Positions 24,878 through 29,856 of a stretch of DNA of 64,000 nt are shown here, piece by piece (the stretch's first letter is position 1; every line of letters starts with the position of its first letter). Origin of the DNA: Rufibacter immobilis (GTDB lineage: Bacteria; Bacteroidota; Bacteroidia; Cytophagales; Hymenobacteraceae). The position numbers were made by a program, and so were the translations under genes. The stretch lies in NCBI RefSeq assembly GCF_003721565.1, contig NZ_RJJE01000017.1, positions 1,600,636 through 1,664,635 on the forward strand, in the 5' to 3' direction. A model generated the notes under the pieces. That model saw only the letters and a program-made list of their open reading frames with translations, had not been told where the DNA came from and ran no database searches.

Positions 24878-24900
24878 CCAGACCTCTCGCGTTCACACAT

Positions 24901-24942
24901 CGGCGGCGGCTCCTTTCATTGGGTGCCGCCGCCGTTATTTTT
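24901..24942 (+). terminator. Rho-independent terminator of ppc
   Basis: CGGCGGCGGC (24901-24910) pairs with GCCGCCGCCG (24925-24934), followed by TTATTTTT. Confidence 0.9.
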
Positions 24943-24992
24943 GGAACAAGGGCATCAACTCAAGACAAATACGTTGATTGGAGTGCGCATTT

Positions 24993-25155
24993 CGTCCCCC
25001 TTGGAAGGGGGTAGGGGGATGACCAATACGTTAGAAGACGTCAAAAGCTTCTATTTGGTGCTCTCTACCTGTTCCGAGATATTAAGATATATTTCCTCTG
25101 CACGAGTAATCATCCCCCTACCTCCTTCAAAGGGGGACTATATACCACTCGGGAC
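24993..25155. repeat. MITE-like element with about 29-bp inverted ends plus a 19-bp tail
   Basis: The left end 24993-25022 (starts CGTCCCCCTTGGAAGGGGGT) is an imperfect inverted repeat of 25110-25138 (TCATCCCCCTACCTCCTTCA and on). They enclose about 87 bp with no reading frame. The adjoining 25137-25155 (minus strand GTCCCGAGTGGTATATAGT) recurs inverted at 28687-28705, so related sequence bounds the AT-rich island on both sides. Confidence 0.75.
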
Positions 25156-25175
25156 AAGCGGTCATAAAATAGCAA

Positions 25176-25198
25176 AAGGAGCTTTAGGGCTCCTTTTT
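25176..25198 (-). terminator. terminator after the 48-aa gene (hairpin usable on both strands)
   Basis: GGAGC-TTTAGG-GCTCC flanked by A-run on the left and T-run on the right, immediately after the leftward small gene. On the minus strand GGAGC CCTAAA GCTCC is followed by TTTT. Confidence 0.7.
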
Positions 25199-25345
25199 TT
25201 ACTTCTTCTCTTCTTCGCCGGCCTGGGGCTTGTCCTTCTTATCGTCCCGTACCGCCACTTTCAGCAAGTCCTCAAGGGTGCCGCTTACGTGCAGCTTCTC
25301 CTCGTACTTGTTGGGTCGTTTCTTGGCTACTTTCTTTTTTACCAT
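25199..25345 (-). CDS. small basic conserved protein, 48 aa
   Basis: ATG at 25345 to TAA at 25199 encodes MVKKKVAKKRPNKYEEKLHV, then SGTLEDLLKVAVRDDKKDKP and QAGEEEKK. A lysine-rich N-terminus is followed by KYEEKLHVSGTLEDLLKVAV, then an acidic/lysine tail. Small proteins with this NKYEEKL.(V/I).GTFDDL(V/L)K.SV pattern are common in Cytophagales and Flavobacteriia and remain uncharacterised (from memory of the pattern). Coding is supported by an unbroken frame, a hairpin terminator directly behind the stop, and core-genome-like base composition in contrast to the AT-rich DNA beginning just upstream. Function unknown. Confidence 0.7.
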   Translation of the reverse strand: MVKKKVAKKRPNKYEEKLHVSGTLEDLLKVAVRDDKKDKPQAGEEEKK

Positions 25346-25546
25346 GAACAAATATACTAAATCAGTTATAAACTTATAAGTTATAATGGGTTGACTTATG
25401 CTGAATCATCTACATCAAGGCAAGAGGATGTCGGATAATTTGCTTTAACGACACTTCGCTGAAGATTCATTATTGTTATTACCCGATAAACAAAATAAAA
25501 TCCGACAACATTTTGTTTTTGTTCGAGGATACGTTACTTTTACATC

Positions 25547-26329
25547 GTGCAAGTCGAAAAAAACATCGAGGATTACAAATCAGGGATACCTGCTTCAGGG
25601 AGCACCAATGGTGTTAACCTATTGGAATGCCTTAAAGATGAGCTTAGTGTAATTGAAGATAAAAAGAATCAATTATTCATTAGCTACCAATCGGAAGTAC
25701 AAAGTCTTGAAACTCGAGAAAAAGAGATTTCAAATATAATTAAGGGATTAGAGGAGCTTATCCTTAAAGCAGAGCAGTTACTGCGCACAGAAGTTAATGA
25801 TGCTTCTGTATCTGTTGTCGGATACAAGGTGGATAAAGCTAAAGAGGACAATAGTCAGGTTGATCAAAATGACAAATCAGATCAACCTACACAGTTGACT
25901 AGCCCTGATAAAGTAGAATTAACTGTACCTGTAAAGAAAGGAGACTTAAGAGGTTTAGTGTTAGAGGTTATCAGATCTTATGATAACTTCTTGTCCTCTA
26001 ATGAGGTTAGTCGAATTATTAATGCAGAATATCCTGAAGCAGGTTACTCAATCAAACAGGTGCAGGATGCTTTGAAAGACGCTAAAAGAGCTTCAATTGA
26101 AAAAGGGAAAATAACTGGACAGTTTATTTACCCTAAACAAGGGAAAAAGCTGTTTCTGTTTGGGTTATTAGATTTTTACACTGATAAACATAACCCGACA
26201 ACCCTAAAAAAAGAGTATTTTGATAAGTTAAACGAAAAAGCTAAAATAAAAGGCTACTCTCTTAAACCGCTTGACACTCCTTCTAAATCAGAACACCAGG
26301 AGCGTCTTTTTAATGGACAAGAGGTATAA
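25547..26329 (+). CDS. accessory protein with N-terminal coiled coil and C-terminal winged-helix-like region
   Basis: The 260-aa frame starts with GTG (25547) and contains no internal methionine, so the non-ATG start is hard to avoid. Residues about 25-85 form a predicted coiled coil (LKDELSVIEDKKNQLFISYQSEVQ and on). A charged, probably disordered linker (about 95-130, many D, Q, S, K) leads to a helical unit, RGLVLEVIRSYDNFLSSNEVSRIIN, then AGYSIKQVQDALKDAK. That unit resembles a winged helix such as HARE-HTH. The upstream DNA offers TTTTTG and TACTTTTA as weak promoter boxes. It is AT-rich and lies in the acquired island just before a hairpin array. I do not recognise the family; DNA or RNA binding is a guess. 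Confidence 0.65.
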   Translation: MQVEKNIEDYKSGIPASGSTNGVNLLECLKDELSVIEDKKNQLFISYQSEVQSLETREKEISNIIKGLEELILKAEQLLRTEVNDASVSVVGYKVDKAKEDNSQVDQNDKSDQPTQLTSPDKVELTVPVKKGDLRGLVLEVIRSYDNFLSSNEVSRIINAEYPEAGYSIKQVQDALKDAKRASIEKGKITGQFIYPKQGKKLFLFGLLDFYTDKHNPTTLKKEYFDKLNEKAKIKGYSLKPLDTPSKSEHQERLFNGQEV

Positions 26330-26354
26330 AAAAAAGGGTAGCTTCTGCTACCCC
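26328..26354 (-). terminator. Rho-independent terminator on the minus strand
   Basis: GGGTAGC (26336-26342) pairs with GCTACCC (26347-26353). The A-run at 26328-26335 gives a U-run after the hairpin only for leftward transcripts. It therefore ends transcription from the transposase or from the hairpin region, and faces the end of the rightward gene. Confidence 0.7.
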
Positions 26355-26385
26355 AAAGTGATTAGTTGATTTAAGGGAACTTTGA

Positions 26386-26563
26386 TTAAGAAGACCGTCG
26401 GAGCGGTTAGGCTTCCAAAACCTAGCCGTGGCTCTCTTAATTAAGAGGTCTAGCGTCCAAAACTAGACCACTTCTTATTTCAACTGATAGGTTAGTTGCG
26501 AGCTAACCTAATAATACTTACGAAGTTGGCTAGTGCACTAGGATAAAATCCTTTACTTGGTGC
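26386..26563 (+). other. array of four hairpins, candidate structured RNA
   Basis: No reading frame is visible, but four hairpins follow one another. H1 has CGGTTAGG (26404) with CCTAGCCG (26421), closed by TTAAGA/TCTTAA. H2 has GGTCTAG (26447) with CTAGACC (26463), closed by TTAAGAG/CTTCTTA. H3 has AGGTTAG (26489) with CTAACCT (26503). H4 has GCACTA (26535) with TTGGTGC (26557), around GGAT-AAA-ATCC. H1 and H2 share the loop sequence TCCAAAA. A strong rightward terminator follows at 26674. Transcription is not shown. Confidence 0.4.
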
Positions 26564-26673
26564 AGACCACATTAGAGTTGCGAATATTAACAATAGTCTC
26601 ATTAGCTATACTGTTAAATATCTGCCACGCCAATTTTGTAAGTACAGGTTTTGGATGTGATACCATTTAATTA

Positions 26674-26705
26674 GGCTACCTGTAAACAGGTAGCCTTTCC
26701 TGTTT
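26674..26705 (+). terminator. rightward terminator after the hairpin array
   Basis: GGCTACCTGT (26674-26683) pairs perfectly with ACAGGTAGCC (26686-26695) around AA, then TTTCCTGTTT. It would end a rightward transcript running through the hairpin array. Confidence 0.65.
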
Positions 26706-26769
26706 ACTTACAAATATATAGAATCTGTTTATGAAATACAAGAACCTCATTGTTTAAAGGTGTAGGTTT

Positions 26770-27692
26770 CTATGCAATAAGATTATCATAAGTAATTCTA
26801 GTATTGCCTACTTTAGAAACCGCATCTTCAAATCTGGTGCAGTATGTTATCGTTCTGTAGTTGTATCTGTAGCCGAACTCATGGCAGTATCTGTGTAAGT
26901 GTTTGGGGCTTACGCTATGATAGATACCGTAGATACCTCTCTTTAGCTGGCTCCAAAAACCCTCTATGCTGTCGTGTGGAACTCGCCGCGTACATACTCG
27001 TCCTGTGCGTGGTTAATTACCTTGTGTGCTTTGAGCTCTTTGTATAGGTCTTTATAACCGCCGAAGCCGTCTGTCACCAGCATTGCGTCTGAACTTACTT
27101 TCTCGCGAAGAATAGGTTTAAGGGTAGAACCGTCTGCCTTTGCTACTATGAAAGTATGCACCTTGCCGTTTCTCTGTAGGAGCCCGGAAACAGGTGTTTT
27201 ATGTACATAGCCCGTTCCCTTCTCGCGTAGTTCCTTACGTACTTTCTTGTGCTTATTGGCAGCCTTGCCGCCTACATAAGTCTCATCTGCCTCAACAGTC
27301 CCTTCCAGCATCTGCGGGGCTTTCTCTTTCAGCATCTCACGGATACGGTGTAGCACGAACCATGCGCTTTTCTGCGTGATGTTCAAATCCCTAGACAACT
27401 GCAAAGAACTGATACATTTCTTATGAGCGGTAACCAGATACATTGCGGCAAACCAAGTTCTAAGCTTAATCTTCGTGTTCTCGAAGATAGTCCCCGTTGT
27501 TACGGTGAACTTCTTGTGACACAGTTTCTCAGAGCATTTATAACCTCTGTTCGTCACATAGGCTTTCACGCATCCGCAATGAGGACAGGCAGGGGTATCA
27601 CCCCAACGCTGCTGCGCCAGGTACTGCTTGCACCTTTCCTCATCCTTGAAGAAGTCTAGTACTTGGATTAGTGAATTGAACTGGCTTTTCAT
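26770..27692 (-). pseudogene. IS1595-family (ISXO2-like) transposase with a frameshift
   Basis: The frame from ATG 27692 encodes a zinc ribbon (CPHCG at about 36-40, CSEKLCHKKF) and then the DDE-type core: ADETYVGGKAANK, ILREKVSSDAMLVTDGFGGY, HKVINHAQDEYVRGEFHT. At about 26970-26975 one base is missing, and the frame stops at 26964. Continuing in the neighbouring frame gives SIEGFWSQLKRGIYGIYHS and a plausible C-terminus ending DNLIA at 26770. The break falls inside the conserved HTNSIEGFW-type block near the last catalytic residue, so the protein should be inactive unless ribosomes shift. No slippery heptamer or clear terminal inverted repeats were seen. Confidence 0.88.
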
Positions 27693-27806
27693 TTAAGTTT
27701 CTGACTTATAACTTTGTAAAGACACAACTTATCCCAGTAAATACCTAATTTAGTTGTTAAAAGTTACGGTGTAGACATAAAAAAAAGAGAGCGGTTAGGC
27801 TCTCTT

Positions 27807-28304
27807 TTATCTTTTAATAAACATTCCGTCTCTTACTTGCTCGTAAGCACTTATGATATTATCCTTGTAAATATGGGTACTATGGAATATTAATGAAGAA
27901 TGAACTTCCATATCTTCTGTACTATTGAATCCATTGATTTTAGTAAGTGGTAGTACAGATTTACTTTCAGAGTACCAAGTATCAAAGATTCTTTTCCTCC
28001 CGCCGTGCATGTTATCAGAACTATCACACACAGTTATTAGCACCCTATCCAAATCTTCTTTGAAGAACGATTCCAGCAAAAGTGAAATAGTTGCCTTTGT
28101 TCGGCCGTTGTCATCCTTTGGCCTTCTTTTGTTCTCTCCTAAGTCCGCTACGTCAAAATTGAAAGTGAAAAACAGGTCTTTTATAAGAGGGTACTCTGTA
28201 AAGAATTCTTGGTAAGCCTCAAAATAGGCATAATACCTAACTCCTTTGTCTGTTATAAAAGAATACCCTATACCTTGTTTATCTAGATTATAATGGAGTG
28301 ACAA
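27807..28304 (-). CDS. DUF6169 family protein
   Basis: A 165-aa soluble protein (SLHYNLDKQGIGYSFITDKGVRYYAYFEAYQEFF) that fits the Bacteroidota family DUF6169, of unknown function. It contains a conserved middle block DNGRTKATISLLLESFFKEDLDRVLITVCDSSD, then KRIFDTWY. No signal peptide or membrane segment. The start at 28304 overlaps the end of the small upstream gene by 17 bp, so the two are translationally coupled. This small-protein-first pair, an operator-like palindrome at the promoter and a location in an acquired AT-rich island recall toxin-antitoxin or related accessory modules; this is inference. Confidence 0.75.
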   Translation of the reverse strand: MSLHYNLDKQGIGYSFITDKGVRYYAYFEAYQEFFTEYPLIKDLFFTFNFDVADLGENKRRPKDDNGRTKATISLLLESFFKEDLDRVLITVCDSSDNMHGGRKRIFDTWYSESKSVLPLTKINGFNSTEDMEVHSSLIFHSTHIYKDNIISAYEQVRDGMFIKR

Positions 28305-28500
28305 ATTTATACCCCTTCGCCTCTAGTTGCTCAAAAGAACCGCCTTTTTTTATGTGCTCATGTATCTCCCTCTTTCGCTCTATCATCTTAGCGAAGGCAG
28401 CAGAGATAGGCTTTGCTGTTTCTTTCTTAACCGATTTCATCTTTCTTTCTTCTAGTTGTTCTTTTCTTCTTTCTGTTGCAAGATATACTACTGTATACAT
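28288..28500 (-). CDS. small charged protein upstream of DUF6169
   Basis: Up to 70 aa from ATG 28500; an ATG at 28440 (MKSVKKETAKPISAAFAKMI) would give 50 aa. The second start is favoured because a TAATTTTG promoter box at 28510-28517 would otherwise leave almost no leader, and purine-rich AGAAGAAAGAAAG precedes it. The sequence is helical and very charged (FAKMIERKREIHEHIKKGGSFEQLEAKGYKFVTPL). The C-terminal SFEQLEAKGYKF is an uncommon motif that I do not recognise. It overlaps DUF6169 by 17 bp. It could be an antitoxin or partner protein. Confidence 0.6.
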   Translation of the reverse strand: MYTVVYLATERRKEQLEERKMKSVKKETAKPISAAFAKMIERKREIHEHIKKGGSFEQLEAKGYKFVTPL

Positions 28501-28509
28501 TGTAGCAAC

Positions 28510-28537
28510 AAAATTAGTTTAAATCTTATTAAGATTT
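28510..28537 (-). promoter_or_regulatory. promoter with overlapping palindromic operator for the DUF6169 pair
   Basis: On the minus strand TAATTTTG (28517-28510) fits the TAnnTTTG minus-7 consensus. Directly upstream, AAATCTTATTAAGATTT (28521-28537) is a perfect 17-bp palindrome covering the area from about minus-14 to minus-33. Such a placement suits an autorepressor. Confidence 0.5.
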
Positions 28538-28653
28538 CCCATCTAACCCCCTTTATTATTACTGGTAGCAACGACCATACCAAGAATATGATTAACAATT
28601 CAATTACCAGCATAGGAACGACATTTAGGTTCTCTTTCTTGTATGCTAGATTT

Positions 28654-28684
28654 AGCAGCGATTAAAGTAACTTTAATCGCTGCT
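28654..28684. repeat. perfect 31-bp palindrome at the island edge
   Basis: AGCAGCGATTAAAGT (28654-28668), one base A, then its exact reverse complement (28670-28684). It adjoins the right MITE-related end at 28687. It could be a terminator without U-run, an operator, or a recombination site. Confidence 0.7.
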
Positions 28685-28686
28685 CT

Positions 28687-28725
28687 GTCCCAAGTAGTAT
28701 ATAGTTGCCCTTCCAAGGGGGACGG
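28687..28725. repeat. partial MITE-like end, right flank of the island
   Basis: GTCCCAAGTAGTATATAGT (28687-28705) matches the inverted left-flank sequence at 25137-25155 in 17 of 19 positions. It is followed by CCCTTCCAAGGGGGACGG, the same type of end as at 24993. The element is truncated here. Confidence 0.65.
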
Positions 28726-28753
28726 AATGCTTGACAATTCCCCATCTCTTGCT

Positions 28754-28789
28754 GTTTTAGCCCGAAATCAGGAAAAAGCGCCCCTAAAC
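28754..28789. repeat. Pal-1 palindrome copy 8 (decayed)
   Basis: GTTTTAGCCCGAAATC then AGGAAAAAGCGCCCCTAAAC. Right half well kept, left half decayed. It lies beyond the hutG stop. Confidence 0.6.
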
Positions 28790-28837
28790 GGGAACCGGCA
28801 AGACAATGAGCAGTTTCCTGAGGCACACGTGTAGCCT

Positions 28838-28882
28838 TTGCGTTTTGGGGCTCTTTTTCTAAAAACAGGCGCTAAACGCCAA
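28838..28882. repeat. Pal-1 palindrome copy 9
   Basis: TTTGCGTTTTGGGGCTCTTT on the left, AAAAACAGGCGCTAAACGCC on the right, 9 bp after the hutG stop on the minus strand. It may serve as the 3-prime end structure of the hut transcript. Confidence 0.75.
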
Positions 28883-28890
28883 AACTTCGC

Positions 28891-29856
28891 TTAATGCCAT
28901 TCCTGCACCAGATGGAAGATGAGGGCGGCGGCTAGTTTGGCCGTCCGGTTGTCTATGTCTAAAGCGGGATTAAGTTCCACCACGTCAAGGGAAAGGACTT
29001 TGCCGCTTTGGATGATTTGCCGGAGCAAGGGCAATGCCGCGTGCGGGGTAATACCCAGGGCGGTGGGCGCACTTACGCCGGGAGCATACGCGGCCGCAAA
29101 CACATCCAGATCAATGCTGAGGTACACCTTCTCTACCCCATCTAGGAACTCACGAAGCTTCTGCTGCACGGTTTCCGCCCCGGTTTGCAACTCCTCGGCG
29201 GTGCAGTACTGAACGCCTAAATCAGCCGCCGTCTTAAAGAGTTTGCGGGTGTTGCCGTACTCCTGAATGCCCAGGCAGAGGTAACGGAACTCCTGCCCTC
29301 CGGCTTGCAGGGCATCGGCGATTTGGAGGAAAGGGCTGCCGGAACTGGGGTGCTGACCGTAGGTTCTCAGGTCAAAATGGGCATCAAGGTTGATGATCCC
29401 CAGCTTCTCGCCGGGCTTCAATTGCGGCTGTATGCCCAGAAAATGCCCGAATGCGGTTTCATGGCCGCCACCCAGCACCAAAGGTTTGTAGCCCTTCCGG
29501 AGCAGCATCTGCACTTTTCGGCCCAATTGGGCTTGGGCTTCTTCCAACCGCTGGTTCGCGCAGATCACATCACCGCCGCCGAAGAGTTGCACCTCGTCCG
29601 GCAGATGATCGGCGAGAGCCGACATGGCCTGCCGGATGGCCGAGGGCGCCGCCGCCGCTCCTACCCGCCCTTGGTTGCGCCGCACGCCTTCGTCGCAGCT
29701 GAACCCCAGGAAAATAATGCTGCCCTCGCTTTCCGCCACCTCCCTGGAAAGATCAAGCAACTGAACTATCTGGTGCCACCGCAACCCCAATACGCCATCC
29801 TGAGGATCAATTCTTCCGTTCCAGGTTGTTTTATCAGATGGTTTGTACATAGGCAA
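28891..29856 (-). CDS. hutG: formimidoylglutamase (arginase family)
   Basis: A 321-aa arginase-fold enzyme that hydrolyses N-formimino-L-glutamate to glutamate and formamide, the last step of histidine breakdown. Manganese ligands are visible in LGGGHETAFGH, IINLDAHFDLR and LSIDLDVFAAA. The preceding gene hutI ends 21 bp upstream, giving a hutI-hutG pair. The arginase family also includes agmatinase, but the neighbours settle the role. Confidence 0.93.
   Translation of the reverse strand: MPMYKPSDKTTWNGRIDPQDGVLGLRWHQIVQLLDLSREVAESEGSIIFLGFSCDEGVRRNQGRVGAAAAPSAIRQAMSALADHLPDEVQLFGGGDVICANQRLEEAQAQLGRKVQMLLRKGYKPLVLGGGHETAFGHFLGIQPQLKPGEKLGIINLDAHFDLRTYGQHPSSGSPFLQIADALQAGGQEFRYLCLGIQEYGNTRKLFKTAADLGVQYCTAEELQTGAETVQQKLREFLDGVEKVYLSIDLDVFAAAYAPGVSAPTALGITPHAALPLLRQIIQSGKVLSLDVVELNPALDIDNRTAKLAAALIFHLVQEWH

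What the first reader, a model, noticed from the sequence alone, without database searches (positions are those of the whole stretch)
26328..26705. Hairpin array between two opposed terminators: candidate unknown structured RNA
About 380 bp without a gene hold four successive hairpins, two with the shared loop element TCCAAAA and with nested closing stems TTAAGA/TCTTAA. A terminator for rightward transcripts lies at 26674 and one for leftward transcripts at 26328. This arrangement suggests a discrete RNA on one strand, possibly the 3-prime part of the transcript of the methionine-free protein at 25547. Protein plus adjacent structured RNA in an acquired island is a form seen in several defence or mobile systems.
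Basis: partly seen in the sequence, partly recalled or inferred. Interest (0 to 1): 0.62.

Follow-up and report, generated by a model that had tools for sequence, protein, structure and literature searches.

The report
Orphan folded RNA in a chromosomal island
A 370-base gene-free stretch in an acquired bacterial island can fold, as rightward RNA, far better than chance into two branched domains behind an orphan protein gene, but no relative of RNA or protein was found, so its function stays untested.

Summary
In detail: 26330-26700 carries the hairpins and outward-facing terminators described. As + strand RNA it folds at -131.4 kcal/mol, z -8.6, into two branched domains (26361-26488, z -5.7; 26516-26643, z -5.35). 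The rightward strand is preferred as RNA (0 of 200 shuffles differ as much) but not as DNA; the + fold has 18 G-U pairs, the - fold 8. The ORF at 25547 is a real but orphan frame. The pair sits in an insertion between ppc-like and hutG-like genes that the 13 comparable same-genus genomes lack. No convincing relative of RNA or protein turned up in genome sets of up to 395, plasmids, phages, viral contigs or Rfam, so covariation is untestable. The shared loop TCCAAAA is weaker evidence than it looked: it is also the apex of abundant palindromes of this genome. A tail (26646-26655) is complementary to both loops (10 and 8 nt): a possible pseudoknot. Best reading: a structured 3' UTR, or an RNA derived from it, of the orphan gene. 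Rivals: a leftward RNA from a perhaps IS-borne promoter, or hairpin debris. Defence or ribonucleoprotein roles lack positive evidence.

The parts
25512..25542 (+). promoter-like pair TTTG - 19 nt - TACTTTTA (one mismatch to TAnnTTTG) just before the ORF; would make the mRNA nearly leaderless
   Evidence: consensus from passages of PMC7366714 and PMC9723704
25547..26329 (+). orphan 260-aa ORF, GTG start, no ATG codon in frame; predicted coiled coil (res. 21-84) and possible winged helix (res. 134-220)
   Evidence: chance of such a stop-free frame 8e-10 at this composition; fold model low confidence (mean pLDDT 53.5)
26335..26354 (-). terminator for leftward transcripts
26361..26488 (+). domain 1: three-way junction carrying the two TCCAAAA hairpins (26403-26429, 26447-26469)
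   Evidence: z -5.70 on +, -3.13 on -
26489..26509 (+). hairpin, 9 bp, between the two domains
   Evidence: mean pair probability 0.94
26515..26644 (+). domain 2: 16-bp closing helix (2 G-U pairs, no mismatch) with two inner branches
   Evidence: z -5.35 on +, -1.51 on - (tested as 26516-26643)
26646..26655 (+). tail AGGUUUUGGA, complementary to 10 nt of hairpin 1 and 8 nt of hairpin 2: possible pseudoknot
   Evidence: 7 of 2000 tail shuffles reach 10 nt or more; mean unpaired probability 0.50 in the pseudoknot-free model
26673..26696 (+). terminator for rightward transcripts (10 bp, short T tail)
26711..26741 (-). promoter-like pair TTG - 20 nt - TATATTTG pointing leftward into the region; its -7 box lies in a candidate terminal repeat of the neighbouring IS

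Best explanation
The stretch is the structured 3' part of the rightward transcript of the orphan gene at 25547. The mRNA starts at the TTTG/TACTTTTA promoter, passes the ORF, meets no rightward terminator at 26335-26354 (that one works leftward only), folds into two multibranched domains and ends near 26696. Most likely it acts as a stable 3' UTR or, after processing, as a 3'-UTR-derived RNA of about 340 nt in which the tail AGGUUUUGGA can pair with the UCCAAAA loops and tie the ends of the fold together. Shown by computation: the fold beyond chance, the strand preference, no rightward terminator found right after the ORF, the island. Inferred: transcription, processing, the pseudoknot, any function.
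For: RNA z -8.56 on + versus -5.02 on -. Core without the end hairpins, 26356-26670: z -6.35 versus -3.23; strand energy difference -19.0 kcal/mol against a shuffle mean of -2.3, sd 5.4, 0 of 200 as large. As DNA the strands are equal, z -6.33 and -6.43, so the asymmetry is an RNA-parameter effect; G-U pairs number 18 on +, 8 on -, as selection on a rightward RNA would leave. 16 of the 21 helices have mean pair probability 0.8 or more. Promoter-like element before the ORF. Tail complementary to both loops. 3'-UTR-derived and strain-specific sRNAs are known in Bacteroides (PMC7366714, passages).
Against: No convincing homologue, hence no covariation. No transcript data. No own + strand promoter found for a separate RNA. 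Other tiles of the genome fold as strongly, and RNase P in that sample is not among the 14 most extreme, so fold strength is a poor sign of function. The leftward strand has the better T tail and a promoter that fits the -7 consensus exactly. The tail is only about half unpaired in the model (0.50).
Confidence: 0.42

Rival explanations
1. The functional or at least the transcribed RNA is leftward: a discrete RNA of about 370 nt that starts near 26704 from the promoter TTG-N20-TATATTTG and ends at the T-rich terminator at 26335; possibly only transcription driven outward by the IS next door.
For: Exact -7 box with TTG at 20 nt and a good terminator. In B. thetaiotaomicron a start site plus an intrinsic terminator marked the high-confidence intergenic sRNAs, and 76% of intergenic sRNA candidates had the canonical promoter (PMC7366714, passages).
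Against: The - strand folds much worse as RNA. The -7 box lies in a candidate IS terminal repeat (26701-26720 with 27707-27726, 15 of 20 matches), so it may have arrived with the IS; that repeat is unproven, since another candidate pair scored higher (11 against 10).
Confidence: 0.2
2. No functional RNA: an intergenic remnant in which palindromic hairpins and terminators, common in this genus, have accumulated.
For: TCCAAAA is the apex of palindromes of this genome: 8 long ones in the window, 5 with exactly this word. The genus carries AGGTTTYCAAAACCT palindromes (pattern in 14 of 16 genomes, own genome included, reversed control 0). The R1 hits elsewhere below E 0.01 (3 genomes) rest on such palindromes. 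Tiles as structured exist: 20 of 3960. Terminator-like sites are frequent in 25300-28900 anyway (10 against 2.4 in shuffles). Singleton.
Against: Hairpin 1 does not match the outer arms of the 10 genus palindromes shown, and both hairpins have open 9-nt loops in the model instead of T:A-paired apices. Domain 2 has no such apex and is strand-specific. Palindrome debris should be strand-symmetric; of 14 equally strong tiles only 4 are as asymmetric.
Confidence: 0.25
3. RNA partner of the adjacent protein: a small ribonucleoprotein module (defence or mobile-element function) in which the coiled-coil/winged-helix protein binds the RNA.
For: Adjacency, same strand, no rightward terminator found between them; both are orphans of the same island.
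Against: No RNA-binding, nuclease or reverse transcriptase domain detected; the winged helix rests on a low-confidence model; no second locus to show that they travel together.
Confidence: 0.08
4. A DNA-level element (replication origin or recombination site of a former mobile element) whose single strand folds.
For: ssDNA fold also far beyond shuffles; the interval between ppc and hutG varies in the genus.
Against: No DNA strand preference while RNA has one; no integrase, relaxase or replication protein recognised among the four island proteins searched, apart from an integrase PHROG at E 0.57 over the coiled coil.
Confidence: 0.05

Closest known systems
3'-UTR-derived or strain-specific intergenic sRNAs of Bacteroidota (B. 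thetaiotaomicron atlas, PMC7366714, passages read)
   Same: Low-GC, terminator-bounded stretch next to or behind an ORF; 27 of 49 high-confidence intergenic sRNAs there are strain-specific, as this seems to be
   Different: Expression unknown here; more branched than expected of a typical sRNA (inference)
Large ornate bacterial RNAs OLE, ROOL, GOLLD (PMC12286853, abstract and section list read)
   Same: Multi-domain fold; loop-tail contact conceivable
   Different: Smaller (their sizes recalled); no Rfam match; no covariation; no evidence of multimers
TnpB omega/right-end RNA (search listing only; architecture recalled)
   Same: Structured RNA at the 3' side of an ORF in a mobile region
   Different: The protein is not TnpB-like in the profile searches
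REP-like intergenic palindromes (PMC3733652, search listing only)
   Same: TTTTCCAAAA-type hairpin apices are abundant in this genome and genus
   Different: Open loops, non-matching arms, strand-specific multibranch fold, single copy

Membership tests
Any Rfam family (release 15) | score at or above the gathering threshold | tested here: not met
   best sub-threshold match AniS 21.6 bits against 50, on the - strand
Functional structured RNA | fold more stable than dinucleotide shuffles, with a strand preference | tested here: met
Functional structured RNA | covariation among homologues | tested here: inconclusive
   no convincing homologue found:
3'-UTR-derived sRNA | rightward transcript with start or processing site in the 3' region and shared terminator | not testable with these tools
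   only the terminator and the lack of an earlier rightward one are seen
TnpB right-end RNA or other RNA-guided nuclease system | adjacent RuvC/TnpB protein | tested here: not met
Retron | reverse transcriptase next to the ncRNA | tested here: not met
   none among the island proteins searched; most other genes of the window were not scanned with profiles
REP-like palindrome family of the genus | same arms and T:A-paired apex, several copies | tested here: not met
   hairpin 1 fits the core pattern with a changed apex (AGGCTTCCAAAACCT) but not the outer arms; the region is single copy

The most novel reading that the evidence does not exclude
A previously undescribed two-part module: an orphan coiled-coil/winged-helix protein and a pseudoknotted, two-domain RNA on the same transcript, acting as one ribonucleoprotein carried by genomic islands and so rare that the genome sets searched here hold one recognisable copy.
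Probability: 0.08. Interest if true: 0.75.

Novelty: new member of a known kind. Interest (0 to 1): 0.33.

Why it matters
If transcribed, it would be an elaborate orphan RNA outside any described family, and a case where strand-specific G-U support rather than covariation points to an RNA. If not, it shows how a hairpin-rich intergenic background can imitate an RNA gene in this group.

Tried and rejected
Homologues of the protein: searches in 291 order genomes and 395 phylum genomes. One search gave 11 non-self matches in 10 genomes (E 2.1e-4 to 0.09). I listed the ORFs of 5 of them (L135, L141, L142, L143, L145) and dropped them as chance by eye, without an alignment; the other 6 were not opened. 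Pattern-seeded searches of genome contigs and viral contigs found no relative. Plasmids and phages: none.

Homologues of the RNA: blastn in 59 genomes, plasmids, phages and E. coli (82, with 25300-26710): only the own copy or nothing. Covariance models from a single sequence given as two identical rows: R1 (domain 1) in 204 family, 395 phylum and 291 order genomes; R2 (domain 2) in 291 order genomes; the sets overlap, and over 40 genomes the stricter filters can lose weak matches. R1: 5 genomes besides the own at E 0.14-0.54, poor or hairpin-only alignments (4 of 6 matches shown). R1: 3 genomes, best E 2.5e-4, palindromic hairpins and not the branched fold (sequence read for L277 and L278 only). 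R1 on the background loci: one match, L308, 20.2 bits, E 0.063, not followed. R2 gave 17.2 bits on the same palindrome in L278 and L279. Searches gave 67 and 16 loci. My test skipped 5 of these 83 because its gap was one base short; redone on all 83, with 2 (L230, L260) having both motifs in stems of 5 bp or more. Neither model scored any of the 83 at E 1 or better.

Repeat copy (MITE) rejected: single copy in the own genome at E 0.001. Known introns, riboswitches, tRNA and tmRNA rejected by Rfam and ARAGORN. A sigma-70 promoter scan was no better than shuffles (7 against 7.8).

Full report
What is there. The stretch 26330-26700 has no ORF of 60 aa or more and lies between the orphan ORF 25547-26329 and an IS1595-type transposase on the other strand. 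That the organism is a Bacteroidota member is my inference from its promoter type and gene content; no call names it.

Is it more than chance. As RNA the + strand folds at -131.4 kcal/mol against -87.8 (sd 5.1) for 100 shuffles, z -8.56; the - strand z is -5.02. Without the end hairpins z is -6.35 and -3.23. Each domain stands alone: -5.70 and -5.35 on +, -3.13 and -1.51 on -. The difference between strands exceeds all 200 shuffles. With DNA parameters the strands are equal. The + fold has 18 G-U pairs, the - fold 8. This fits selection on a rightward RNA better than a DNA element or symmetric palindromes. It is indirect evidence: a single sequence shows no selection directly.

How unusual. 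In the window no + strand tile of 637 is as extreme after correction for GC; on the - strand 16 of 637 are. In 400 kb of the same genome 20 of 3960 strand-tiles are as extreme; taken by the better strand 14 of 1980, and 4 of these have as large a strand difference. Rfam was run on 5 of the 20 background loci; its one hit, RNase P at L310 3097-3553, is longer than a tile and is not among the 14. The measure ranks the stretch high without proving function.

The shared loop. TCCAAAA in two loops is rare in shuffles (1 of 1000 with a shared word of 7), but that control is too mild. The window holds eight long palindromes with a T-run/A-run apex (22081, 34897, 37528, 41890, 49624, 52182, 55760, 59920), 5 of them with exactly TCCAAAA. 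The genus carries palindromes around AGGTTTYCAAAACCT: the search pattern occurs in 14 of 16 genomes, own included, 30 times in one, the reversed control 0 in all. Hairpin 1 fits that pattern with a changed apex, not the arms of the 10 examples shown. So the word may come from the local hairpin style. Against pure debris: both loops are open in the model (CNUCCAAAA; unpaired 0.84 and 0.98); if the two hairpins are duplicates, their stems differ by compensating changes (my reading of the sequence); and the tail 26646-26655 is complementary to 10 nt of hairpin 1 and 8 nt of hairpin 2 (7 of 2000 tail shuffles reach 10 or more). The tail is half unpaired in the model (0.50). A pseudoknot is a fair guess, no more.

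The island. A ppc-like gene (PEP carboxylase profile, E 2e-156 but below its curated cut-off) and a hutG-like gene (name recalled, no profile search) are neighbours in the genus. From the distance between their matched ends is 4020 bp here, 5249 in G015 and 132 to 1159 in the other 12 of the 14 genomes with a ppc match. The gap regions of the 13 other genomes share only short pieces with the island, none in the ORF or the folded stretch. Some carry other cargo (G015: a 1274-aa ORF; G014 and G011: a 242-aa ORF), and none holds an R1 or R2 match at E 1.

The protein. 260 codons without stop have a chance of 8e-10 at this composition. Pfam's best match was a phage protein domain at E 0.0047, below its cut-off; PHROGs, NCBIfam and PDB sequences gave weak matches only, PADLOC none. 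A single-sequence AlphaFold model has a confident helix in 21-84 and a poor C-terminal part whose first Foldseek matches include Fur/PerR and other winged-helix proteins, none with E below 0.36. No convincing relative was found in any set searched.

Which strand is transcribed. Before the ORF lies TTTG-N19-TACTTTTA, one mismatch from the Bacteroidota -7 consensus (consensus in passages of PMC7366714 and PMC9723704). The mRNA would be almost leaderless, which those papers report as rare (3.7% and 5.5%). Into the region from the right points TTG-N20-TATATTTG, a full match, inside a candidate terminal repeat of the IS (26701-26720 with 27707-27726, 15 of 20; another candidate pair scored higher, so the IS ends are not settled). 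These were the only two hits under the criteria used in 1461 bp, both strands. Promoter and terminator alone would favour a leftward RNA; folding favours rightward. I weigh the fold more because the leftward promoter may have come with the IS; that is a judgement.

Verdict. A real, strongly and strand-specifically foldable stretch behind an orphan gene; most likely a structured 3' UTR or an RNA derived from it. No family membership, no covariation, no expression evidence. Ordinary kind, unusual degree.

Noticed in passing
22081, 34897, 37528, 41890, 49624, 52182, 55760, 59920: Eight long palindromes of the type GCGTTTAGGGGCTSTTTTTCCAAAAASAGCCCCTAAACGC or variants, a REP-like or terminator-like repeat of this genome; similar words elsewhere in the genome.
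   Followed up: partly
G015, G014, G012, G009 and other same-genus genomes: A second palindrome family, e.g. GACCTCACAGGTTTTCAAAACCTGTGAGGTC (L287), with 0 to 30 pattern matches per genome; few in the window's genome.
   Followed up: partly
about 26775-27692 (-): IS1595-type transposase broken by a frame change after the residues GEFHT, the rest continuing in another frame; a programmed frameshift is not excluded.
   Followed up: partly
26401-26413 and 27789-27801: Exact 13-nt direct repeat GAGCGGTTAGGCT, once in hairpin 1 and once in the terminator hairpin beside the DUF6169 gene.
   Followed up: no
27807-28304 and 28288-28500 (-): DUF6169 gene overlapped by a 70-aa ORF, possibly a two-gene unit of the island.
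   Followed up: no
ppc-hutG interval of the genus (about 24880-28890 here; L181, L182, L183): Variable interval with different cargo in different species.
   Followed up: partly
L310 8601-8971, - strand: Strongly structured and strand-asymmetric tile (26.9 kcal/mol); no Rfam match.
   Followed up: no
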